DNA of 64,000 nucleotides, from NCBI RefSeq assembly GCF_012516395.1, contig NZ_CP051206.1, positions 1,904,501-1,968,500 of the forward strand. The letters run 5' to 3'. The notes under the pieces were generated by a model. The model did no database searches and had not been told where the DNA came from. It saw only the letters and a list, made by a program, of their open reading frames with translations. The stretch is from Dolichospermum flos-aquae CCAP 1403/13F (lineage in GTDB: Bacteria > Cyanobacteriota > Cyanobacteriia > Cyanobacteriales > Nostocaceae). Shown in pieces: positions 2,898 to 59,200 of the stretch. Numbering within the stretch: the stretch's first letter is position 1; every line of letters starts with the position of its first letter. A program made the position numbers and the translations under genes.

Positions 2898-4205
2898 CTA
2901 CAACCTGATATGAGGATAATTCATTAAAGCTTTGTTCGGGGAATATACAGAATGAAAATGATGCTGATGAGAACTAAAAACTACATTACCTAAATCTGCT
3001 GCTAAATTGATTCTTCGGGGTAATTCTATTTTAAACGTTGAACCCACTCCTAATTGACTTTCAACACATATTTTTCCTCCCATTATCCCCACTAGTGAAT
3101 CAATAATAGCCAAACCCAAACCTGTCCCTGAATATTTACGGCTGATACCTTGATCAATTTGATGAAATGCTGCAAAAATGTTTTGAAAATCTTGAGAAGC
3201 AATCCCAATTCCTGTATCTTTAACAGTTATTGTAACTTGATTTTTAGGTGTTTCTCGAATTTCTACCCAAATATTGCCAGATTCTGTAAATTTAACAGCA
3301 TTGGTCAGTAAATTAGTTAAAATTTGCCGTAATCGGGCTGCATCATTAAATACTGATGTATTCTCTAAGTCTGTTTTGACTAACAAAGATAACTTTTTGG
3401 CCTCAGCTAAGGGGCGGATTTCTGTAACTACGTTACTAACAACTGCTGATAAATCCAATATTTCTGGCTTTAGTGCTAATTTCCCAGATTCTAGCTGAGA
3501 AAAATCCAGAATTTCATTGATCTTGATCAGTAACTCTTTACCATTATTGAGAATTTTCTCTACCATGACCAGTTGTTGATCTGTCAATTCACCAAATTTA
3601 GGACGTAATAGAATCTGTGAAAATCCAATAATCGCATTCATGGGAGTTCTTAGTTCATGGGATATGGTGGCTAAAAATAGTGATTTTAAACTGGATGCTT
3701 CCAAAATATTGAGGTTTTGTTCTTGAATATGCTGCTGCTGTGCTGTGAATTCTTTCTGCTGTAAAATTAGCTGTTCACGACTTTCTTTAAGCTGTTGATT
3801 TGCTAAATTTAGCTGCATTTCCGTATGGTGAATACGAATTGCACTGCGTAACATTTGAGCTATGGTTTCTGGAGATAATTTAGACTTAATAAAATACTCG
3901 GTAGCACCTAATTTTATCCACTCTTGGGCTATTTTTTCATCTCCTGAATCTATGAGAATTACTAAAGGAACTTTAATCCCTGAAGATTGTAATTTATGAA
4001 TTAATGTTAAGCTGTCTTGATTTGGTAAGTGATAGTCGAGAAATATGCAATCATAGTGATTATGGATTAGGGCAAAGAAGGCTTGACTCCCATCCTTAAC
4101 TTCATCAATTTCCATCTTAATACCTGTTTTAGTCAGAGCTAAACTTACTATTAAGCCGTCTACCTGATCATTTTCTACAACTAAAATTTTTAGCGGTTCT
4201 TCCAT
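2898..4205 (-). CDS. receiver-histidine kinase hybrid with central coiled coil
   Basis: A protein of 435 residues. The N-terminal receiver has acceptor Asp57 in CIFLDYHLPN and Lys in YFIKSK. A glutamine-rich coiled coil (about 128-170) links it to a HisKA domain (phosphoacceptor His in ATISHELRTPMNAIIG, near residue 184) and an HATPase domain (LTNAVKFTESG, DTGIGIA, GTGLGLAI). The last 35 or so residues after the ATPase are histidine-rich (SSHQHHFHSVY) and are not part of the canonical domain. There are no membrane segments. The gene precedes the similar kinase ending at 1761 in a likely two-gene operon. The receiver resembles those that relay from phytochrome- or sensor-type kinases, but the signal is unknown. 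Confidence 0.92.
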   Translation of the reverse strand: MEEPLKILVVENDQVDGLIVSLALTKTGIKMEIDEVKDGSQAFFALIHNHYDCIFLDYHLPNQDSLTLIHKLQSSGIKVPLVILIDSGDEKIAQEWIKLGATEYFIKSKLSPETIAQMLRSAIRIHHTEMQLNLANQQLKESREQLILQQKEFTAQQQHIQEQNLNILEASSLKSLFLATISHELRTPMNAIIGFSQILLRPKFGELTDQQLVMVEKILNNGKELLIKINEILDFSQLESGKLALKPEILDLSAVVSNVVTEIRPLAEAKKLSLLVKTDLENTSVFNDAARLRQILTNLLTNAVKFTESGNIWVEIRETPKNQVTITVKDTGIGIASQDFQNIFAAFHQIDQGISRKYSGTGLGLAIIDSLVGIMGGKICVESQLGVGSTFKIELPRRINLAADLGNVVFSSHQHHFHSVYSPNKALMNYPHIRL

Positions 4206-4511
4206 CGGTTTTTCTTTTTGCTGTTAAATACAGATTTATGTTCAGCATTTCTGTTTTTACAGTCTCTAGATTGTACAAATAATCAACATGATTTTTTGCT
4301 GAATTAGCAGATTTATTCCCAAATAAAATAAAATACTTTATCCAGTTAAAAACATTGTAAATTACTAATTCATTAACTGTCCTCACCCATTAGTGAGAGT
4401 TGCATGGAAACATTATGTACCATTAGCGTAAGTATTTAAACTTAAAGAGTAGGAATAATTGCTAAATAAGGATCACTTACCTCCTGCGGATGAATTGGTT
4501 TTTAGAGCAGG

Positions 4512-4723
4512 TAAGTAGGTGAACGGAAAAAAACCGTAGACGCGGAGCGGCTTCTCGAAGAGTAATATGTAACGAAAAGTAAAATCGCCCAAACCCTCTT
4601 CACTCTTGCCTCTGGTTACTGAGCGAAGTCGAAGTATTGCCTCTTGCCTAGTGCCATAACGACGATTTTCAATGCTAACCTACTTAGTTGCAAAGCTGAC
4701 TTAATCAGCTTTTTAACCTACTT
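4512..4723. repeat. MITE-like element with TAAGTAGGT ends
   Basis: TAAGTAGGTGAACGG at 4512 is matched in inverse orientation by AACCTACTTA at 4677-4686 and again at 4714-4723, so the right end is uncertain. The outer TAAGTAGGT matches the ends of the 130-bp element at 38310-38439. The interior carries other short cyanobacterial repeats and no ORF. Confidence 0.45.
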
Positions 4724-5488
4724 AATTTTTGATTTTTGACCTCCGCATTGCGGAACTGCCGTGTTGAGTCCATTGTAAATTTGGTGATCATGGTGTAACT
4801 GTAATTTTTCTGATTTGTCTCAATAATCTCATTTGTTTTGGGAAAAATATCTATATGTCTTTAGCTAGATTTTTGCATCTATTGAAATTCAAAAATCAAT
4901 TATTCATTATTCCTATTGGTAGATGTTTAATGGTTCACAGATCGTATATGCTCAAGGTTGGGTAAATTGAATACAATTCTTAAAAAACAAAACCTTCTGT
5001 CTATTAGCACTACTTCAGAGGTAGTCTAATTATCATGGGTGTAATAGTCAGTAACTCAGCCCTAAAGGGACTGAGCTTGTAATTTATTACAAGCTGTACT
5101 GACCAGTCTAAGTCTTCACTGACTACGTTTTTTGAGTCACGACACCCTGGAATGCGAAGCTAGTTCCCTGCTCTGTCATTTGCAATTAAACAGTTTTAAA
5201 GTCACTGAAACAGTGTTGCAAGTCTAAAAAGCTCTTAAAACATTGACGAAGCTAACATCACCCCGAAAGGGAGGCTCTTCGGAGCAACACATTATGCGTA
5301 CAGAGTTGGGAAATTTGAATCGGTAATTGTCCCGTTGAAAGTACACCACAAAAGTACCCCGAATTTCTTAACTCCAAGGCGGTAATGAAAAAATATTCAA
5401 AGCGGTTAAAACCGTGGTCAGTGAGCAGTTCGACAAGCTCACTGTAACACTTGTCGAACTGCCCGTGCCGTGGCTGGTGAGCCATATC

Positions 5489-5513
5489 GATAGCGTAGCG
5501 TGGCGTTAGCCAT
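5489..5513 (+). repeat. short dispersed repeat (gatagcgtagcgtggcg...agccat)
   Basis: A 25-bp unit, gatagcgtagcgtggcg followed by ttagccat. Near-identical copies occur at 26069-26093 and 27069-27093. It is intergenic in all three places and of unknown function. Confidence 0.8.
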
Positions 5514-5566
5514 ACCATCCCTCTCAGGGCTAAAGCCGCTGAGTTTCCCACTTACCGGGTATTCTT

Positions 5567-6289
5567 ATGAGTGAGATTAGTATTCTATTAATTGAAGATC
5601 ACGATTTAACCCGCATGGGACTCAAAACTGAATTGCAGTCACACAGCGGCTTTAAGGTGATTGGTGAGGCAGCCAATGCGACTCAAGGACTAAAACTTTT
5701 AGAAACAATCAAGCCAAATGTGGCTGTGATAGATATTGGTTTACCTGATATGAGTGGAATTGAGCTAACGCGTAAATTTAGACGTTATCAGACAGAAACG
5801 GGACAATTTCAGACGAAAATTTTGATTTTGACGATGAATAATACTGAAGATGCAGTTCTAGCGGCTTTTGCGGCGGGAGCAGATTCTTATTATATGAAGG
5901 AAACAAGTATTAATAAATTTACTGAAGCTGTAGAAGCAACTTTTCATGGTAATTCTTGGATTGATCCAGCGATCGCTAGTGTCGTATTACGAAAAATGCG
6001 TCAAGGTGTCCCCGGTGATCATCAATCATTGGACAAGCCAAAAACTGTAAAAATCGAAGCTCTGGAAATAGAATATGAACAAGTTTTAGAAACTTATCCC
6101 CTCACCCAAAGGGAACTGGAAATTTTAGAATTGATTGTGGGTGGTTGCAGCAATGGCCAAATCGCCGAAAAATTATATATTACTGTAGGTACAGTAAAAA
6201 CTCATGTTCGCAATATCTTAAATAAACTCTGTGCTGATGATCGAACCCAAGCAGCCGTGCGGGCTTTACGTTCTGGGTTGGTAGTTTAA
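5567..6289 (+). CDS. NarL/FixJ-family response regulator
   Basis: A response regulator of 240 residues. The N-terminal receiver (about 4-135) has an acidic pocket (EDHD, 10-13), acceptor Asp56 in VAVIDIGLPDMSG and Lys in YYMKET. A LuxR-type helix-turn-helix (about 174-236) reads LTQRELEILELIVGG...TVGTVKTHVRNILNKL. It is expected to bind DNA as a dimer after phosphorylation. It lies downstream of the kinase cluster but in opposite orientation, so it is a plausible but unproven output. The start ATG 5567 is the only one that keeps the receiver intact. The 3' end overlaps the convergent TIGR03492 gene by 24 bp. Confidence 0.92.
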   Translation: MSEISILLIEDHDLTRMGLKTELQSHSGFKVIGEAANATQGLKLLETIKPNVAVIDIGLPDMSGIELTRKFRRYQTETGQFQTKILILTMNNTEDAVLAAFAAGADSYYMKETSINKFTEAVEATFHGNSWIDPAIASVVLRKMRQGVPGDHQSLDKPKTVKIEALEIEYEQVLETYPLTQRELEILELIVGGCSNGQIAEKLYITVGTVKTHVRNILNKLCADDRTQAAVRALRSGLVV

Positions 6290-7603
6290 TTTTTCCTGCA
6301 AACATTCTGCAATCCGTTGTGCTGCACCTGCACGTCCCATGCGCTGCAACCCATTTTCAGCAATCTCATGTAAGAGGTCAGGATTTTTGAGTAGAGATTG
6401 GATAGCGGGGAGAACTTGTGATGGTTGGTTGACGAGGGTGAGAGATATTCCTAAAAGCCGACTTTGAGCTTCTGCAAAAGCGGGGTTGTATTGAGGTCCA
6501 TGACCAGAAATAGCGATCGCTGGTTTTCCCAAACCGATGAATTGTTCTGTTGCTGTTCCAGCCATAGCGATCGCCAGATCACCTAAATGTAAGCATTCAT
6601 TATAGGCTTGTTGGGTCAGGATAAAATAAGCATTTTTTTGGTTAAAAGTCAAGCTATCAGGGTCAGAAATTGCTAAAGGAGATTGATCACACCGTCGCCA
6701 ACCTTGAATGTGTAAAGTTTGGGATAAAATACTACAATCTAAACCAGGAGCGATCGCCCCTAAAAAAATCATCGTCCCCGCAGCCCGAAAGATGGAATCT
6801 GGTTGTCGTAAACTAGCCGTCAGCGCAGATACAGCAATCATGATGATTTCCCAATTGTTGTAAGCTTCCGGCGCACGAGAACCGGGTAACAGAGTCACAA
6901 TCAAAGGCCGAATCACTTCTTCGAGTTCAGCATCAGGACGATAAAACTGTTGTGCGGTAAAAATCTTCTGCAAACCATCCATCATGGGATTCCCCACATC
7001 CACAGCGGGAATTCGCCATTTTTTGAGAATTTCCGTAGTCAGAGCATCTCTAGGAAACACAGCCCGACAACGGCCACGACTCATCAACCATCTTTCCCAA
7101 GGATGGTAAATTGAACCAGAAAAATTTTCCCACCATGCGGACTTTGATTTTCTCGGTAATAATCCCGCTTCATCGCGCACATAGTATTCTGATTTAGCAG
7201 TACCTACAAAGGCATAATTAGCACCACTCACTGCTGCAAACAACAGGGGAACAATATCCCCCACCGCTAGAATAGCTTTGGGATTACCTAACTTGGTTTG
7301 TGAACTTACCCAACTGCGGATAGATTGAATTTGATTAAGAGTCAACTGCACCAACCCACCCCGCAGATCGCGCATTAATTCGCGGCTATCCATATATATA
7401 AAACCACCAGAAGGCATAGTCTGCACCTTACCAATCATAGAAATATCTATTTGTTGATAAGCACGTCCTTCACCTACTATTGGTAAAGCAAAAATATCTG
7501 GTGGAGAAGATAATTGTTGTAGAGCCTGGATAATCCGAACAGCAATGATATCTTCTCCGTGACCATTGCTTAAGACTAATAACTGTAAACGAGAATTGGT
7601 CAT
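6266..7603 (-). CDS. lipid-A-disaccharide synthase-related protein (TIGR03492)
   Basis: A protein of 445 residues belonging to the cyanobacterial/plastid family related to LpxB-type glycosyltransferases. It starts with LLVLSNGHGEDIIA, the N-terminal nucleotide-sugar fold signature, and contains ILAVGDIVPLLFAA, FVGTAKSEYYVRDE, VGNPMMDGL and TLLPGSRAPEAYNNW. It ends with the donor-binding segment AMAGTATEQFIGLGKPAI. No membrane segment is obvious. The reaction is not established for this family, and true LpxB activity should not be assumed. The 3' end overlaps the convergent response regulator gene. The length matches family members I know. Confidence 0.85.
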   Translation of the reverse strand: MTNSRLQLLVLSNGHGEDIIAVRIIQALQQLSSPPDIFALPIVGEGRAYQQIDISMIGKVQTMPSGGFIYMDSRELMRDLRGGLVQLTLNQIQSIRSWVSSQTKLGNPKAILAVGDIVPLLFAAVSGANYAFVGTAKSEYYVRDEAGLLPRKSKSAWWENFSGSIYHPWERWLMSRGRCRAVFPRDALTTEILKKWRIPAVDVGNPMMDGLQKIFTAQQFYRPDAELEEVIRPLIVTLLPGSRAPEAYNNWEIIMIAVSALTASLRQPDSIFRAAGTMIFLGAIAPGLDCSILSQTLHIQGWRRCDQSPLAISDPDSLTFNQKNAYFILTQQAYNECLHLGDLAIAMAGTATEQFIGLGKPAIAISGHGPQYNPAFAEAQSRLLGISLTLVNQPSQVLPAIQSLLKNPDLLHEIAENGLQRMGRAGAAQRIAECLQEKLNYQPRT

Positions 7604-8782: not shown

Positions 8783-9619
8783 ATGAAACCAATTCTGCAA
8801 ATAGCAGCATTTGTAACTATAATTATTTTTGTGAGTGTTACCTTGGTTTCTGTCCATAAAGTTTTTCGAGATCAGTTAATACTAACTCCCCAAATTGCCA
8901 AAGAATGTTTAACTAATTCCAGCTTACCTTGTGACAATTCAAAGTCATCTATAAATATACCATTTATTCCCGATCAGAAATTAGATGATCAACAACGGTT
9001 TTTAGCAACAATTGCCAAAAAAATCCCCACCATTCCCCAGGATGATACTTTTGAATATACTTTACTACGTTCCTATGGAACAGTATTTATTAATCAAGAG
9101 TCAGGAATTAATTTACCACAAAAAGTGATTTTAGATAACGAATCAGAAACAAAATCTTTTCAGAAGACAATGAGTATAGCTTTAGTAGATGGCACTCAAG
9201 AATGTTATTTACAAAAAACCGCAGCAGCAGCTTTAAATAAGGCGAAAAGTTTAGAAAATATTCCCCTTAAATCAGGTTATGCTGGTGATTGTCTTCGCAA
9301 TTTTGCCACTAATTTAAGATTTTGGAATAAATACGCAAATAGTGAAACATTAGCAAGAGTCAAAGCCGGAAAAGAAACAAAAATTCTCGGTTTAGTTGCA
9401 CCCCCCGGTACGTCACAACATCTGTGGGGATTAGCAATTGATTTACAAGTATCAACATCAACCCAAAGACAGGCTTTAAATGAAAATGGTTGGTTTCAAA
9501 CTGTAGTTAGTGATCTTCCCCATTGGACTTATTTAAGCCAGAGTGAAGATGATTTACCCAAATTTGGATTACAACAAAAAACTATCCAAGGAATTAAATA
9601 TTGGGTAACACCAATTTAA
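8783..9619 (+). CDS. VanY-like D-alanyl-D-alanine carboxypeptidase (M15B)
   Basis: A protein of 278 residues from ATG 8783. A GTG at 8738 would add 15 residues but places extra charged residues before the signal anchor, so ATG is preferred. The N-terminus (MKPILQIAAFVTIIIFVSVTL) is a membrane anchor or signal, placing the enzyme outside the plasma membrane. The C-terminal half carries the peptidase M15 zinc motif SQHLWGLAIDL (pattern SxHxxGxAxD) and the second metal ligand in LPHWTYL. Members trim the terminal D-Ala of peptidoglycan stem peptides. It is a lone gene with no van-type resistance genes nearby, so a cell-wall maintenance role is inferred. Confidence 0.88.
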   Translation: MKPILQIAAFVTIIIFVSVTLVSVHKVFRDQLILTPQIAKECLTNSSLPCDNSKSSINIPFIPDQKLDDQQRFLATIAKKIPTIPQDDTFEYTLLRSYGTVFINQESGINLPQKVILDNESETKSFQKTMSIALVDGTQECYLQKTAAAALNKAKSLENIPLKSGYAGDCLRNFATNLRFWNKYANSETLARVKAGKETKILGLVAPPGTSQHLWGLAIDLQVSTSTQRQALNENGWFQTVVSDLPHWTYLSQSEDDLPKFGLQQKTIQGIKYWVTPI

Positions 9620-9633
9620 TTTGTCAGTTGTTA

Positions 9634-9706
9634 GTAGGGGCGAAGCATTTGGAAGATAAATTATCGGTCATTGCCAAAAATAGTTCTCCAAATGCTTCGC
9701 CCGTAC
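9634..9706. repeat. inverted-repeat element (cgaagcatttgga)
   Basis: The left arm gtaggggcgaagcatttgga (9634-9653) pairs with the right arm tccaaatgcttcgcccgtac (9687-9706) around a loop of about 33 bases. It is flanked by short direct repeats of gtcagtt. It looks like a small dispersed cyanobacterial hairpin element and lies just after the peptidase stop, where it could end transcription. Confidence 0.75.
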
Positions 9707-9798
9707 AGTTGTCAGTTGTCAGTTCTTAGGAGAAAGAAGGAAATTTCCCTGTTCTCTGTTATAAACTAGTAAGATATCCGATAGTTGGAGTTTTAACA

Positions 9799-10380
9799 GT
9801 GAGTTTATTTGATGATTTAAGTCGGTTTTTAGAAAGTCGTTTAGAAGAGTTCTTGCGGAATAACCCTCATTTAGAGTTAGAAGCACTTTTAGAACAACTG
9901 CGGGAACAAGAAGAAGATACATTAAAGTTAATTGCTGAGTTACAATTGCAAGAGAAGCGATCGCAAGATGAAATTCTCAGCACAGCCCAAGAAATCCAAA
10001 AATGGCATATTCGGATTCAAAAAGCCCAAGCCGTAGGTAGACAAGACTTAGCCACCCCAGCCCAAGAACGAGAAGCAGCCCTACTGCGAGAAGGAAATCA
10101 AATGTGGGGACAAATGCAAGGTTTAAAAGAACGCATTAACCAATCCCAAGAACTACTTCGCAAAATTCAAACCCGTCGTCAAGAAGTACAAACCAAAGCA
10201 GCCGAAGCACAAACAGCTAGAACCAAAGCACAAACCCAACAAAAACTAGAAACTGAAACTCATGGCTGGAATACATCTACTAATTCTAATAGTAACTTTG
10301 ATGATTTAGAAAATACATTTCGCCGTTGGGAAACCCAAGATGAATTAGAGTGCGATTCGTTGTTAGTTGAATCACGGTAA
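9799..10380 (+). CDS. TIGR04376 family coiled-coil protein, 5' exon with intron read-through tail
   Basis: A long amphipathic protein starting MSLFDDLSRFLESRLEEFL, almost wholly helical and rich in Glu, Gln and Lys, typical of the cyanobacterial TIGR04376 family (function unknown). The GTG start at 9799 has GGAG eight bases upstream. Family sequence continues to about DELE at 10350; the last nine residues (CDSLLVESR) are encoded by the start of a group II intron. The lost C-terminus (ELKRNMGK and stop) is found at 12707-12730 after the intron. Unspliced message gives a 193-residue protein with a false tail; spliced message restores the normal end. Confidence 0.88.
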   Translation: MSLFDDLSRFLESRLEEFLRNNPHLELEALLEQLREQEEDTLKLIAELQLQEKRSQDEILSTAQEIQKWHIRIQKAQAVGRQDLATPAQEREAALLREGNQMWGQMQGLKERINQSQELLRKIQTRRQEVQTKAAEAQTARTKAQTQQKLETETHGWNTSTNSNSNFDDLENTFRRWETQDELECDSLLVESR

Positions 10381-10902
10381 ACAGCCCGTACATAAGCTAA
10401 CCAACCCAATCCAATCATGGAGAAAGGTTGAACTCTCGGTCTGATATGGGTGAAAGTCCCATCTACCAGACTCAGGTATGACTCCCTACCTACCCACACT
10501 GACTAGACTCGGTTTCTAGAGGGTGAAGCTGGGAACAGGACGCAATCAGACATCCGTTGTGGGGTGACACTTGGCGTTAATGGGGAGTTCCTACGGTGAA
10601 ACAGAGCCTAAAGAAGCAACCTACATCTAAGCAGGACACAATACCAAAACCTGACTTCATTGGAGTTAATTCCCGCCGCACTTTCTAGTGGTAGCGGTAA
10701 GAGTCCAGGGAATCCAATGGTTGAATTGGCTACATCTAAGGGAACGAACAATCTAACCGAGGGAACGAATAAAAACGGATTGAGGGTCTAAGGGCGGTCG
10801 AACCCTATAAGTAGGCTGGACGAGCAGCGGAACTCCCTCAATTCGGGTAGGACAGACCGTAATTGGTCTGAGGTGTTCAGAATACACAAATGGTCGCAGA
10901 GC

Positions 10903-12616
10903 ATGATTAGACACAGAGAAAACTCTAGTGAATCCTGGAAAACGTTACCTTGGAAGAAATTCCGCCGTAACTTATTCCGCCTACAAAAACGCGTGTATAA
11001 AGCTGTTCTTGTTGGAGACAAGCGCAAAGCGAAGTCCTTACAAAAGCTGATTCTGAAATCAACCTCCGCAAGATTACTGGCTATCCGTCAAGTAACACAG
11101 CTAAATGCTGGGAAAAAGACAGCGGGAATAGACGGTCAAACCGCGCTCTCATTCGAGCAAAGGTTTGAACTAAGTGAAAAACTTAGAACCGAAGCTAATA
11201 ACTGGAAACACCAGGGATTACGTGAAATACCCATCCCTAAAAAGGATGGTAAAACCCGGATTTTCAAAGTCCCCACTATTGCAGATAGGGCGTATCAATG
11301 CCTCATCAAATACGCATTAGAACCAGCACACGAAGTAACTTTCCATGCTAAAAGCTATGGGTTTAGGACGGGACGCTCGGCACATGATGCACAAAGACAA
11401 CTGTTCAACAATCTAAACTCCAGCGCAAATGGAATGGATAAAAGGGTTATAGAACTCGATATCGAAAAATGCTTCGACAGGATAAACCACTCCGCCATTA
11501 TGGATAAACTCATCGCTCCTAAGAGTATAAGACAAGGAATCTTCCGATGTCTCAAAGCCGGAGTCAACCCAGAGTTTCCCGAACAAGGAACACCGCAAGG
11601 TGGGGTGGTAAGTCCACTGTTAGCCAACATCGCCTTAAATGGGATTGAAAGTATTCATAGATACCATGAGGACTCTAAAAAAAGAATCACAGACAAAACC
11701 TCAAGGGAAAAGATTATTGAGCCAACAATCCGATACGCGGATGACATGGTAATAATACTTAGACCACAAGACGATGCCACAGAAATACTTGACAAAATTA
11801 GTCAGTTCCTAGCAGAGCGGGGAATGAAAGTCGGTGAGAAAAAGACAAAGCTAACCGCCTCGACAGATGGGTTTGATTTCCTCGGCTGGAACTTCAAAGT
11901 CCAGAAAAACGGGAAGTTTAGATGTACTCCCTCAATGGATAACTACAAAGCTTTTCGTAAGAAAGTAAAACACATCGTCAACAACTCGAATTATGGTGCT
12001 ACCACAAAGGCTGAGAAATTAGCCCCTGTAGTTAGAGGTTGGAGGAACTACCACCGCTTCTGCAAGATGGACGGGTCGCGTAACTCGCTATACCACATTC
12101 AACACAGAGCTTTCAAGGTATTCAATAAGGAAACTAAGCAAAATCGCTACACTAGCAAGCAATTACTAGACAAGGCGTTCCCAGCAGTTCCTTACTCCGA
12201 AAATAAACACATCAATGTTAAAGGTGAAAAATCGCCCCAGGACGGAGATTTGAGTTATTGGAGCGAGCGTAATAGTAAGCTCCATAACAACAATACCTCT
12301 AAAGCCCTCCAACGGCAAAACCATAAATGTGGACATTGTGGATTAAAAATGCTCAGTGATGAGAAGGTACATTTGCATCATGTTGATGGAAACTAAGTAG
12401 AACGGCTTGAATAATTCAAAGTTTGTAGTGAGGAATTTATTCCTCATTTGAGGGCTGAAGCCCTTACTACGAAATCATCTCCAGATTTTTTACATTACTT
12501 AATCTACTTTGATTTATTTTCGTCTACTTACTTATAACAATTGAAAACCTAAAAACCTTCTAGCCATTCATGAAAGCTGCCACGATTATATTCACATGAG
12601 CAAACGCGAAAGCTAA
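10903..12616 (+). pseudogene. ltrA: group II intron reverse transcriptase/maturase, disrupted
   Basis: A multi-domain intron protein from ATG 10903 (an upstream GTG 10873 is possible). It has reverse transcriptase blocks including GTPQGGVVSPLLANI and the catalytic IRYADDMVI, then a maturase X domain (PVVRGWRNYHRF) and an HNH endonuclease with a CGHCG zinc pair and HHVDGN. At HHVDGN the frame is cut by a 141-bp MITE, which supplies a TAA at 12394. Beyond the MITE the missing part is still readable (NN, then TGA where Trp is expected, then KPKNLLAIHESCHDYIHMS, ending KRES-stop at 12616). It therefore carries two lesions: the insertion and a TGG-to-TGA nonsense change. The reverse transcriptase and X domains are intact and may still aid splicing; the endonuclease is truncated. 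Confidence 0.9.
12394..12534 (+). mobile_element. 141-bp MITE, copy A
   Basis: The element begins TAAGTAGAACGG and ends CGTCTACTTACTTA. It differs from the copy at 58923-59063 by only two bases in 141. Removing it together with one TA restores the HNH codons ...GGA AAC TAT AAC AAT, consistent with a TA target duplication as made by IS630/Tc1-type transposases (inference). It has no ORF of its own and an internal inverted repeat (gtagtgagga.../...gcccttactac). Confidence 0.9.
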
Positions 12617-12706
12617 GAACATCGAAAGCTGGGTGCGGTGAAAGTCGCACGCCCAGATTTAACAGAGAGGAGCGAGGGATAATACCCGCCTTCGACTCTA
12701 CCAAAA

Positions 12707-12730
12707 CTCAAACGAAACATGGGAAAATAA
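12707..12730 (+). other. 3' exon of the TIGR04376 gene
   Basis: CTC AAA CGA AAC ATG GGA AAA TAA encodes LKRNMGK-stop, the typical TIGR04376 C-terminus, and is in frame with the 5' exon if the intron is excised at about 10350/12706. It is separated from the 5' exon by about 2.36 kb. Confidence 0.8.
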
Positions 12731-12742
12731 TTATGTATAACA

Positions 12743-12774
12743 AGATCCCCGACTTCTTAGAGAAGTCGGGGATC
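12743..12774. repeat. GATCCCCGACTTCTT palindrome, copy 2
   Basis: The perfect arms agatccccgacttct and agaagtcggggatct surround a two-base loop. It is the same repeat as at 40600, 48425 and 50449 and lies 12 bp after the TIGR04376 3' exon. Confidence 0.85.
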
Positions 12775-12825
12775 TAAATGGCATTGAGCCGAGATCCTTG
12801 CTCAAACGGAAATAGAGTGAATGGG

Positions 12826-12988
12826 GAAAAGCTATTCCCTCCGAGCGCCAAAGGCGTAATTATCAACAGGCAATTCGAGAATATTTAGGTATAAAACCTT
12901 ATGATAAAGCTGCCCAAAAGTTGATAGCAATTGTTGTCAGTTCTGCCGCCGAAGTTAAAGACCATCCTGCGGATTTAATCAACATTAC
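12826..12988 (+). pseudogene. fragment of a DUF4158 (Tn3-type transposase N-terminal) gene
   Basis: The frame reads ERQRRNYQQAIREYLG, then IKPYDKAAQKL and EVKDHPADLINI. This matches, from memory, the DUF4158 domain found at the N-terminus of Tn3-like transposases. It has no start codon: the upstream end is replaced by unrelated sequence and the palindrome at 12743. The downstream end stops at the left inverted repeat of the IS1634-type element at 12989, and no continuation is visible after that element. It is a relic of an older transposon. Confidence 0.65.
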
Positions 12989-15202
12989 AACCCACATTCC
13001 GCACCCCAAACTGTCACAGATCAAAAAAGCCCTTAAAGTAGTACATAATAACTAAAGTCAATTCAAAAATTAAGATGCTTAATGATAATAAATAGCATTA
13101 AAAGCGAAATGGTGTGAGAAAGTGAAACTTGGTAACAAAAGAAAAAAATGAATTGATAACCAAATAAGAAATAATTGATAACAACAGAAGTATGAGAGGA
13201 AACTGTTGTGAAATTAAAACCTCAAGAAATGGAAATTCAGAACATAGACCATCTAGGGATAGTAGCAGGAATCATAGATTCAATCGGAATAGTAGAAATA
13301 ATAAATGAATTAATAGGAGTCGAAAAAGACGAAAAAGTAAATGCAGGTCAAGTGGTAAAAGCCATGATAATAAACGGGTTAGGATTTGTCTCCAAACCGT
13401 TATATATGTTTCCCAAATATTTTGAAACAATAGCCTGTGAGCATTTAATAGGAGCAGGAGTAAAACCAGAATATCTCAACGACGATAAATTGGGGAGAGT
13501 CATGGATAAACTGTTTATAAAAGGCTTAGATACAATCTTTTTTATCATAGCCTTAAAAGCTGCTCAAAAATTTGGAGTATCACTATCAACATCACATCTA
13601 GACTCATCATCAATGCACGTGCATGGGCAGTATAACACTAGCTTACCATTCGTAATATTTGAGAGTCAAAAAGTAGGAAATAACCAAGAATTAGAAGAAT
13701 TAGCAGTAAAATCACCAAAAGAAATAACCATCACCTACGGTTATTCTCGTGACCATCGTCCAGACTTAAAACAGTTTATCATAGAAATGATATGTTCAGG
13801 AGATGGAGACATACCAATATTTTTAAAACTAGCATCGGGAAACCAAGCTGACTCATCATGTTTTGGTAAAATAGCAGTAGAATATCAAAAACAATTAGAA
13901 GTTAATAGTCTCATGGTTGCTGACGCTGCTTTATATACAGAATCAAACCTGAAAATGATGTCAGAATTACGTTGGTTATGTCGAGTACCATTAAGCATAA
14001 AAGCAGCAAAATCATTAATATCAACATTAGCAGAATCAGAATTTATTGATAGTACAATACCAGGATATAAATTAGCATCAAAAATCCAAAATTATGCAGG
14101 GATAGAACAAAGATGGTTAGTAGTGCAAAGTCAAGAAAGAAAAGAATCAGACCTGCATAAGCTCACACAAAAAATTACCAAAGCAGAATCAAAAGCTGTG
14201 CAAGATTTGAAAAAGTTATCACAAGAGAGACTTGCATGTGTTGCAGATGCTATCAAGGCATTATCAAAATTATCAAAACAATTCAAATATCATCAAATTC
14301 ACGAAAGTACGGTGACTCAAGTAAAATCTAATAAAAAAGATACTTCAGGAGAAATATCCTATCAAATATCAGCTACAGTCTCCCAGGATGAAAGTAAAAT
14401 TAATACAGAATTGCTGAGTGCGGGACGTTTTATTATTGCGACAAATGTTTTAGATTCAAAGGAACTAAGCAATGATTCTATGCTCAGGGAATATAAAGCT
14501 CAACAATCATGTGAAAGAGGGTTTGGTTTTCTCAAAGACCCATTATTTTTTGCCGACAGTATTTTCCTCAAAAGTCCTGAGAGAATAGAGTCTTTGGGAA
14601 TGATTATGGGTTTATGTCTACTGGTTTATACTTTGGCTCAACGTCATATTAGAAATGCTCTTTTGGAGTCTAAATCAACAATTAAAAATCAATTAGGCAA
14701 AGCAACTAATCGTCCTACTTTACGCTGGATTTTTCAATGCTTTCAGTGTATTCATTTGGTTACACTCAATCAGGAGAAACATATTTCTAATTGGAATAAG
14801 GACAGAGATTTTATCTTGAGTCTTTTACCAGATGATTGTTTACGTTACTATCAATTAGTCAGCTAATTATCATCTCTATCAATTTAATTTCTATGAGTAA
14901 AGATGAGCTAATCTCTTTGATTTATAGCTCCATTTTACTATGTCTATAATTTCGTTTTTTACTTTAATTGATTAGTCTAACTTATAATTATTTCTTGAAT
15001 ATCTCCTTTCGCTTATTCATTGACCTCTCCAGGTGGTGTGCATTCTTATTGCTTCTTATTGAGAATAGATTTTGATGACATTTTTGGTGATTTACTGTTT
15101 CTCAAATGCCTTTTTTCACTTTATCTGTTTGTTTTGATGCTTCCTTTGATTTTCATCTCCGTAATTTCCCTCTGTAACATTTTGGGGTGCGGAATGTGGG
15201 TT
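12989..15202 (+). mobile_element. IS1634-family insertion sequence
   Basis: The terminal inverted repeats are aacccacattccgcacccc plus aaa at 12989-13011 and its reverse complement ending at 15202. They extend to about 32 bp with two mismatches. The 2.2-kb element encodes one transposase with about 200 bp of non-coding sequence on the left and 340 bp on the right. The flanks ATTAC (left) and ATTAG (right) are a possible imperfect 5-bp target duplication. It is inserted at the edge of the DUF4158 relic. Confidence 0.88.
13208..14866 (+). CDS. IS1634-family transposase
   Basis: A transposase of 552 residues with an N-terminal DUF4277-like region (MKLKPQEMEIQNIDHLGIVAG) and a DDE catalytic core: SHLDSSSMHVHG for the first Asp, VADAALYT for the second and QQSCERGFGFLKDPLFF for the Glu. 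The GTG start at 13208 follows an AGAGGAAA ribosome site. The length is normal for the family and no frameshift was seen, so the element may be active. A charged, coiled insertion lies between the second and third catalytic regions (about residues 310-345), as in other members. Confidence 0.9.
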   Translation: MKLKPQEMEIQNIDHLGIVAGIIDSIGIVEIINELIGVEKDEKVNAGQVVKAMIINGLGFVSKPLYMFPKYFETIACEHLIGAGVKPEYLNDDKLGRVMDKLFIKGLDTIFFIIALKAAQKFGVSLSTSHLDSSSMHVHGQYNTSLPFVIFESQKVGNNQELEELAVKSPKEITITYGYSRDHRPDLKQFIIEMICSGDGDIPIFLKLASGNQADSSCFGKIAVEYQKQLEVNSLMVADAALYTESNLKMMSELRWLCRVPLSIKAAKSLISTLAESEFIDSTIPGYKLASKIQNYAGIEQRWLVVQSQERKESDLHKLTQKITKAESKAVQDLKKLSQERLACVADAIKALSKLSKQFKYHQIHESTVTQVKSNKKDTSGEISYQISATVSQDESKINTELLSAGRFIIATNVLDSKELSNDSMLREYKAQQSCERGFGFLKDPLFFADSIFLKSPERIESLGMIMGLCLLVYTLAQRHIRNALLESKSTIKNQLGKATNRPTLRWIFQCFQCIHLVTLNQEKHISNWNKDRDFILSLLPDDCLRYYQLVS

Positions 15203-58922: not shown

Positions 58923-59063
58923 TAAGTAGAACGGCTTGAATAATTCAAAGTTTGTAGTGAGGAATTTATTCCTTATTTGAGGGCTGAAGCCCTTACTACG
59001 AAATCATCTCCATATTTTTTACATTACTTAATCTACTTTGATTTATTTTCGTCTACTTACTTA
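58923..59063 (+). mobile_element. 141-bp MITE, copy B
   Basis: It differs from the copy inside the intron maturase (12394-12534) at two positions only. The ends are TAAGTAGAACGG and CGTCTACTTACTTA. It lies 7 bp from the end of the 169-bp MITE. Confidence 0.93.
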
Positions 59064-59200
59064 GAAAAAAATAGCAGATAGATTAAACCACAATTCAGAC
59101 AGGACTGCGTTGAGGAATATATAAGGTGTAGTGAAGCGTTGGCAAAAAAGATGTATCATAAATCATGAGGAGAAAAATGATACCTTAACCAATATTACAA

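What the first reader, a model, noticed from the sequence alone, without database searches (positions are those of the whole stretch)
9799..12730. Group II intron splits a TIGR04376 gene eight codons before its end
Intron ends, domain V and reverse transcriptase are visible. The 5' exon stops matching the family at GTGCGATTCG, and the family C-terminus (LKRNMGK-stop) reappears right after domain VI. Most bacterial group II introns sit between genes or in mobile elements; one inside a conserved gene that must splice to give the native protein is uncommon. The unspliced form still makes a nearly full-length protein, so the intron may be tolerated either way.
Basis: partly seen in the sequence, partly recalled or inferred. 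Interest (0 to 1): 0.72.

Follow-up and report, generated by a model that had tools for sequence, protein, structure and literature searches.

The report
Self-splicing intron inside cyanobacterial Vipp1-like gene
A self-splicing RNA element, probably once mobile, sits inside a conserved, single-copy cyanobacterial gene just before its end, so the cell most likely has to cut it out of the RNA to make the normal protein; the kind of element is known, and many of the related copies examined in the same genus also sit inside genes.

Summary
Confirmed and sharpened. A 2,353-nt group II intron (10350-12702) interrupts the only TIGR04376 gene found in a Dolichospermum-like genome (exons 9799-10349 and 12703-12730). 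Seventeen homologue loci carry the exact empty site; joining the exons restores the family C-terminus DELEKLKRNMGK. The ribozyme is well supported: 38 of 145 predicted pairs in its 5' part show compensatory change, and EBS1, EBS2 and EBS3 covary with the exons over 45 insertion sites (EBS3: 44 of 45).

New member of a known kind; splicing itself is not shown.

The parts
9799..10349 (+). 5' exon of the TIGR04376 gene (183 codons plus GA of the split Glu codon)
   Evidence: NCBIfam TIGR04376 271.9 bits, profile 1-183; homologues align up to the junction
10338..10342 (+). IBS2 (AGATG)
   Evidence: pairs with CATCT at 10624-10628, five Watson-Crick pairs
10344..10349 (+). IBS1 (ATTAGA)
   Evidence: pairs with TCTAGT at 10684-10689, five Watson-Crick pairs and one G-U
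10350..12702 (+). group II intron, 2353 nt, GTGCG...CTACC
   Evidence: empty sites, 49 family copies with both ends, Rfam domain V, consensus fold
10350..10872 (+). 5' part of the intron RNA (domain I and following domains up to the ORF; domain limits not assigned one by one)
   Evidence: RNAalifold over 32 copies: 145 pairs, 38 with compensatory change; single-sequence fold z -1.65
10624..10628 (+). EBS2 (CATCT)
   Evidence: covaries with the 5' exon over 45 distinct sites
10684..10689 (+). EBS1 (TCTAGT)
   Evidence: covaries with the 5' exon over 45 distinct sites
10726..10726 (+). EBS3 (T, pairs with IBS3 A at 12703)
   Evidence: 44 of 45 sites pair, 21.4 expected from shuffles
10873..12396 (+). 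intron-encoded RT/maturase ORF, 507 aa from GTG; C-terminus cut short by the MITE
   Evidence: TIGR04416 299.3 bits (cut-off 300), RVT_N, RVT_1, GIIM; 42 of the 48 other copies go on to H[EK]SCHDY.H
12394..12534 (+). 141-bp MITE-like element with imperfect terminal inverted repeats (TAAGTAGA/TCTACTTA)
   Evidence: four near-full-length copies, 97-100% identical, elsewhere in the same genome; ends by comparison of these copies
12624..12701 (+). intron domains V and VI; candidate branch-point A at 12695
   Evidence: Rfam RF00029; fold z -2.67; A invariant in 25 aligned copies; branch point inferred
12703..12730 (+). 3' exon: A|AAA CTC AAA CGA AAC ATG GGA AAA TAA
   Evidence: differs from L008 and L009 by one synonymous change (Arg CGA versus CGC)

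Best explanation
A group IIB intron retrohomed into the single-copy TIGR04376 gene of this lineage at a site matching its EBS1, EBS2 and EBS3 (pairing shown, retrohoming inferred). The pre-mRNA folds into the ribozyme; its own RT/maturase, or that of another copy in the genome, helps it excise itself; the joined exons encode the normal 192-residue Vipp1/PspA-like protein ending DELEKLKRNMGK (inferred). A small MITE inserted in the intron ORF and cut off the end of the presumed HNH endonuclease domain (insertion and truncation shown, function inferred). This should leave splicing possible but impair retrohoming, so the intron is probably now a resident splicing-only element (inferred). Unspliced mRNA would give a 193-residue protein with a foreign tail.
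For: Exact empty site in 17 homologue loci; 56 of 56 other over-cut-off genomes and 80 of 80 named loci uninterrupted. One copy of the gene in its genome. Exons otherwise intact; one synonymous change in the 3' exon against the nearest relatives. Ribozyme fold with covariation. EBS1, EBS2 and EBS3 fit this junction and covary with their exons over 45 sites. RT and maturase domains intact; nearest solved relative 6me0_C, E 1.6e-68. No + strand terminator-like site in 9600-12900. A copy with a longer, MITE-free ORF lies elsewhere in the genome (L122). Sense bias of the copies that interrupt open frames.
Against: No RNA evidence. The intron protein is truncated, scores 0.7 bits under the TIGR04416 cut-off, and its few private substitutions (3 synonymous, 10 non-synonymous; opportunity ratio 3.8) show no purifying selection. 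A MITE in the ORF region might disturb folding. The intron at this site is private to this genome among those searched, so there may have been little time for selection on splicing. Fold of the single window sequence is only mildly better than shuffles in the 5' part (z -1.65).
Confidence: 0.82

Rival explanations
1. The intron is spliced poorly or not at all; the cell lives with the 193-residue unspliced protein with an altered tail, or with loss of the protein.
For: Truncated intron protein with private substitutions at a near-neutral ratio; the unspliced frame keeps 184 of 192 residues.
Against: The tail is strongly conserved in the family; EBS/IBS pairings at this site are strong; RT and maturase domains are intact; copies that interrupt open frames are mostly sense.
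Confidence: 0.13
2. Splicing is partial and gives two C-terminal forms of the Vipp1/PspA-like protein (ending KLKRNMGK or CDSLLVESR), with a regulatory use.
For: The split codon encodes Glu in both forms and the unspliced frame ends nine codons further on; the cut falls in the predicted terminal helix.
Against: The early stop lies in the intron start, which is much alike in all aligned copies, so it is not special to this site; the arrangement is not conserved in relatives.
Confidence: 0.05

Closest known systems
Group II introns of Thermosynechococcus elongatus (TeI3/TeI4; PMC2882425, passages read)
   Same: Cyanobacterial multi-copy group II introns that recognise sites by EBS1, EBS2 and EBS3; closest known relative said to be the CL/IIB1 intron EcI5; a small number are in genes, one near the 3' end of a gene; one intron ORF there (TeI4g) is broken by an insertion element. 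The nearest solved maturase to the window's is 6me0_C, which I recall to be from T. elongatus.
   Different: There only a small number of copies are in genes; here 18 of 45 sites interrupt an open frame in sense and 4 in antisense.
Group II introns in protein-coding genes of Trichodesmium erythraeum (PMC4649490, passages read)
   Same: Cyanobacterial introns inside protein-coding genes; 17 documented to splice in vivo, with splicing that may depend on trans-encoded maturases.
   Different: Other genus and genes; splicing shown there, not here.
Housekeeping-gene introns: heat-shock operon intron (Adamidi et al. 2003) and recA of Geobacillus kaustophilus (Chee and Takami 2005); only the titles seen, in the reference list of PMC4424553; that the first is Azotobacter groEL near its stop codon is recalled
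   Same: Intron in, or at the end of, a conserved bacterial gene.
   Different: Other hosts and genes; here a Vipp1/PspA-like gene.

Membership tests
Group II intron | 5' end GUGYG | tested here: met
   GTGCG in the window and in the 51 rows listed with a 5' end (rows were chosen by a match at the intron start)
Group II intron | Domain V | tested here: met
   Rfam RF00029, 53 bits against gathering 40
Group II intron | Domain VI with bulged branch-point A near the 3' end | tested here: met
   Fold leaves A 12695 unpaired, 8 nt from the 3' end, invariant in 25 copies; branching itself not tested
Group II intron | 3' end AY (recalled consensus) | tested here: inconclusive
   Ends ACC (AAC in some copies); end fixed by the empty site and by 49 copies
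Group II intron | Large 5' domain fold supported by covariation | tested here: met
   38 of 145 pairs with compensatory change over 32 copies
Group IIB intron | EBS3-IBS3 pairing at the 3' splice site | tested here: met
   44 of 45 sites pair, 21.4 expected
Chloroplast-like (CL) intron class | Intron protein groups with CL proteins in a tree | not tested
   No reference tree built; nearest solved relative 6me0_C at E 1.6e-68, against 1.7e-25 for LtrA
Mobile (retrohoming) group II intron | RT with YADD and maturase domain | tested here: met
   RVT_1, GIIM; YADD; TIGR04416 at 299.3 bits, just under its cut-off of 300
Mobile (retrohoming) group II intron | Complete C-terminal endonuclease | tested here: not met
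   ORF stops at HLHHVDGN where 42 of 48 other copies go on to H[EK]SCHDY.H; the HNH label is recalled, Pfam finds none even in the L122 copy
Spliced gene-resident intron | Spliced mRNA in vivo | not testable with these tools
   No RNA data
TIGR04376 (host gene) | Score over curated cut-off 125 bits | tested here: met
   271.9 bits for the 5' exon part alone
PspA/Vipp1 (ESCRT-III-like) fold of the host protein | Structural match of a predicted model | tested here: met
   Model of the uninterrupted homologue L008 (pLDDT 78.7, pTM 0.56); the first 17 Foldseek hits are all Vipp1 or PspA, 8 of them at E <= 0.001, best 1.7e-5, TM about 0.6 with large rmsd for full-length targets; sequence profile E 0.0033

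The most novel reading that the evidence does not exclude
In Dolichospermum-like cyanobacteria a group IIB intron family behaves much like organellar introns: it settles in host genes in sense orientation at many sites, including NAD kinase, SSB, CobO, HsdM and this Vipp1-like gene, and is spliced well enough to be tolerated, with some copies (as here) losing mobility and becoming splicing-only residents served by trans-acting maturases.
Probability: 0.3. Interest if true: 0.62.

Novelty: new member of a known kind. Interest (0 to 1): 0.42.

Why it matters
It gives a clean natural test of whether bacterial group II introns can live in conserved genes: exact empty sites, mapped EBS/IBS pairings, a truncated intron protein, and a host protein whose lost tail is strongly conserved. 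The sense bias of the copies that interrupt open frames in the genus suggests that splicing in vivo may be routine there. That bears on how mobile introns became the resident introns of organelles and nuclei.

Tried and rejected
Considered and rejected: (a) intron end at 12701 (recalled consensus AY): it would leave an extra C and shift the frame, and relatives lack that C. (b) A terminator inside the MITE that would cut off the 3' exon: no + strand terminator-like site in 9600-12900. (c) A second TIGR04376 copy that makes splicing needless: none found. (d) An intron shared with relatives at this site: none of the 56 other over-cut-off genomes is interrupted. (e) That the interrupted SSB of G013 and NAD kinase of G002 are sole copies: not so, each genome has a second uninterrupted paralogue, so those insertions do not prove essential splicing. 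(f) HNH by Pfam: not recognised even in the L122 copy, so the HNH label rests on recall of the motif.

Led nowhere: single-sequence folding of the 5' part is only mildly better than shuffles (z -1.65). A search for TIGR04376 found no paper; 'group II intron' with Dolichospermum found one paper, on IsrB structure, that does not treat introns of this genus in the passages I read; 'reverse transcriptase' with Dolichospermum and intron found none; searches with Anabaena and with Nostoc listed nothing that by title treats this intron family. Private-substitution counts in the intron protein are too few to decide on selection.

Rows dropped or doubtful: L118 and L124 have no 3' end and are not among the 49 copies. 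One search cut its list of matches, so further copies may exist; its query held the MITE, so some genomes there match by the MITE alone. Two of 34 distinct 5' segments (L115, L116) were left out. In the sense/antisense count L101 and L115 show an IscB frame only on the 3' side; without them the count is 16 to 4 (hand calculation, two-sided p about 0.012). The window's own site is not in the count, because its 3' side has only eight codons. Some sites are in related genes or come from related copies, so they are not fully independent.

Full report
OBSERVATION. The ORF at 9799-10380 matches TIGR04376 at 271.9 bits over profile 1-183 of 189 and then departs from it at GTGCGATTCG. The rest of the family C-terminus, KLKRNMGK-stop, is at 12704-12730, after a domain V found by Rfam (12624-12701, 53 bits). 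Of 59 genomes searched besides the window's own, 57 have the family at E <= 0.001 and 56 over the cut-off; all 56 run to profile position 187-189 in one frame, while the window's own stops at 183. Its genome has no second copy. A scan of named genome contigs found 214 relatives and kept 80; in 80 of 80 the tail is intact and of the form [LM][KR]R[NK][MLI][GQSK][KR], sometimes with one more residue. A further 30 of 30 loci are uninterrupted. The exact empty site GAATTAGAAAAACTCAAACG is in 17 of these 110 homologue loci (206 loci of all kinds were searched). The nearest named relatives are Dolichospermum and Anabaena, so the host is a Dolichospermum-like cyanobacterium (inference).

BOUNDARIES. 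The intron runs from 10350 to 12702 (2,353 nt). Its 3' end is ..CTACC, one base beyond what the recalled AY consensus would suggest. Relatives have five A after TTAG at the site; the window has one before and four after the intron. The 49 family copies with both ends found finish in ACC or AAC, and one genome holds two copies head to tail..CTCTACC|GTGCG.. (L116). The insertion splits a Glu codon as GA|A; the intron's own first G also completes a Glu codon, so 184 residues are common to both forms. The spliced protein would have 192 residues, the unspliced one has 193.

RIBOZYME. RNAalifold on 32 copies of the first ~525 nt gives 145 pairs, 38 with compensatory changes in at least one copy. The window's last 82 nt fold into the domain V and VI hairpins (z -2.67), with a candidate branch A at 12695 (inferred). 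EBS1 (10684-10689, TCTAGT) pairs with IBS1 (ATTAGA), and EBS2 (10624-10628, CATCT) with IBS2 (AGATG). Over 45 distinct sites the mean pairing score is 5.14 for EBS1 (shuffled exons 3.33, sd 0.13, highest of 200 3.73) and 4.32 for EBS2 (2.86, sd 0.10, highest 3.21); 35 and 32 of the 45 sites pair perfectly or nearly so. EBS3 (10726) pairs with the first base of the 3' exon at 44 of 45 sites, 21.4 expected. The fit with this very junction indicates that the intron sits at a proper target site.

INTRON PROTEIN. The ORF has RVT_N, RVT_1 and maturase (GIIM) domains and YADD. It scores 299.3 bits to TIGR04416, just under that model's cut-off of 300. The nearest solved relative is 6me0_C (E 1.6e-68), ahead of LtrA (1.7e-25). 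The ORF ends ..HLHHVDGN because a 141-bp element (12394-12534) with imperfect terminal inverted repeats lies there; four near-full-length copies 97-100% identical, and several partial or more diverged ones, lie elsewhere in the genome. In 42 of the 48 other copies the frame goes on to H[EK]SCHDY.H; in the other 6 it shifts just before that motif. This looks like loss of the end of an HNH endonuclease (motif recalled; Pfam finds no HNH even in the L122 copy). Endonuclease loss is expected to impair retrohoming more than splicing (general knowledge of such proteins, recalled). Another copy in the same genome, L122, has a longer ORF that could help in trans. Private substitutions of the window's protein are 3 synonymous and 10 non-synonymous against an opportunity ratio of 3.8: no sign of purifying selection, but the numbers are small.

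HOST PROTEIN. A model of the uninterrupted homologue L008 (mean pLDDT 78.7, pTM 0.56) has an N-terminal helix, a long two-helix hairpin and a terminal helix at residues 169-191. Its first 17 Foldseek matches are all Vipp1 or PspA (8 at E <= 0.001, best 1.7e-5; TM about 0.6, rmsd large for full-length targets), and a sequence profile finds Vipp1 first (E 0.0033). The terminal helix is modelled with low confidence (mean pLDDT about 60 over residues 171-190). The intron cuts this helix at residue 184; K187, R188 and G191 of the lost tail are invariant among 28 aligned homologues. The tail therefore probably matters, which makes a merely tolerated unspliced form less likely.

THE INTRON FAMILY IN THE GENUS. 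The intron's DNA has matches in 15 of 16 genomes of the genus, the window's own included, but the query held the MITE and some genomes show only partial or MITE matches; long copies were listed in six genomes (G000, G002, G005, G011, G013, G014), and the list was cut. I fetched 48 stretches with copies that looked long and, with the window, found both ends in 49 copies at 45 distinct 5' junctions. With one rule for both strands (at least 20 open codons on each side, at least 150 in all), 18 sites interrupt an open frame in the sense direction and 4 in antisense (two-sided p = 0.0043; at 100 codons 22 to 4, p = 0.0005; at 200 codons 17 to 4, p = 0.007). I scanned 18 sense sites with Pfam: 16 of those 18 (not L101 and L115) plus L082 and L123; both halves for 12 of them and the 5' half alone for 6. 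In 9 of the 12 both halves hit one family or neighbouring domains: NAD kinase, CobO (in a protein with two CobO domains), HsdM/N6-methylase, IscB (RRXRR 1-26 and 29-172), DUF2887 (1-128 and 132-200), an IS607-like resolvase (its 5' hit is under Pfam's cut-off) and three TnpB genes. The other three (SSB, nitroreductase, DUF4145) hit over the cut-off on one half only. Of the six scanned by the 5' half alone, three hit (a relaxase and two TnpB) and three did not (L082, L096, L105). Of the four antisense sites I scanned three: one is an oxidoreductase on both halves, one an NB-ARC protein on one half, one gave only a weak hit; the fourth (L112) was not scanned. NAD kinase and SSB have second paralogues in the same genomes, so these insertions need not be in sole copies. 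About half of the sense hosts with a family are themselves mobile-element genes (TnpB, IscB, resolvase, relaxase). The sense bias is what one expects if sense insertions are spliced and tolerated and antisense ones are not; a bias of the insertion process itself is not excluded.

COMPARISON. That most bacterial group II introns lie outside housekeeping genes is stated in PMC4424553 and PMC6003770; [quoted passage not shown] PMC8919778 reports cyanobacteria with more than 100 group II introns per genome (passages read). Trichodesmium has many introns in protein-coding genes, 17 documented to splice in vivo (PMC4649490, passages read). In T. elongatus only a small number of copies are in genes, one near a gene's 3' end (PMC2882425, passages read). 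The window's intron is therefore a new member of a known kind. I found no paper on group II introns of Dolichospermum in the open library with the searches.

VERDICT. The likeliest mechanism is self-splicing with maturase help that restores the native Vipp1/PspA-like protein; this is inferred, not shown. The wider, sense-biased residence of the intron family in genes is the more interesting lead.

Noticed in passing
window 5047-5261: HEARO RNA (Rfam RF02033, 156 bits). Among the open frames of at least 60 aa listed for 4000-6300 I recognised no IscB or IsrB by eye; looks like a solitary copy.
   Followed up: partly
window 12394-12534 and about 58923-59069: 141-bp MITE-like element; a second copy lies in the same window, and further full-length, partial and diverged copies lie elsewhere in the genome.
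   Followed up: partly
window 13208-14866: IS1634-family transposase gene (415.5 bits) shortly downstream of the interrupted gene.
   Followed up: no
L116:1501-5866: Two copies of the intron head to tail with no exon between them; the intron's 3' end offers four pairs to its own EBS2 but no good EBS1 match, so homing or recombination are both possible.
   Followed up: partly
L104, L101, L115-L117, L090, L092, L121, L123, L126: Relatives of the intron sit in or just before IscB genes and in TnpB genes: introns nested in genes of OMEGA-type nucleases.
   Followed up: partly
L105:1501-6035: Two intron copies in the same orientation, 112 bp apart, in what looks like one gene; the second lies five codons before the stop, much like the window's case.
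   Followed up: partly
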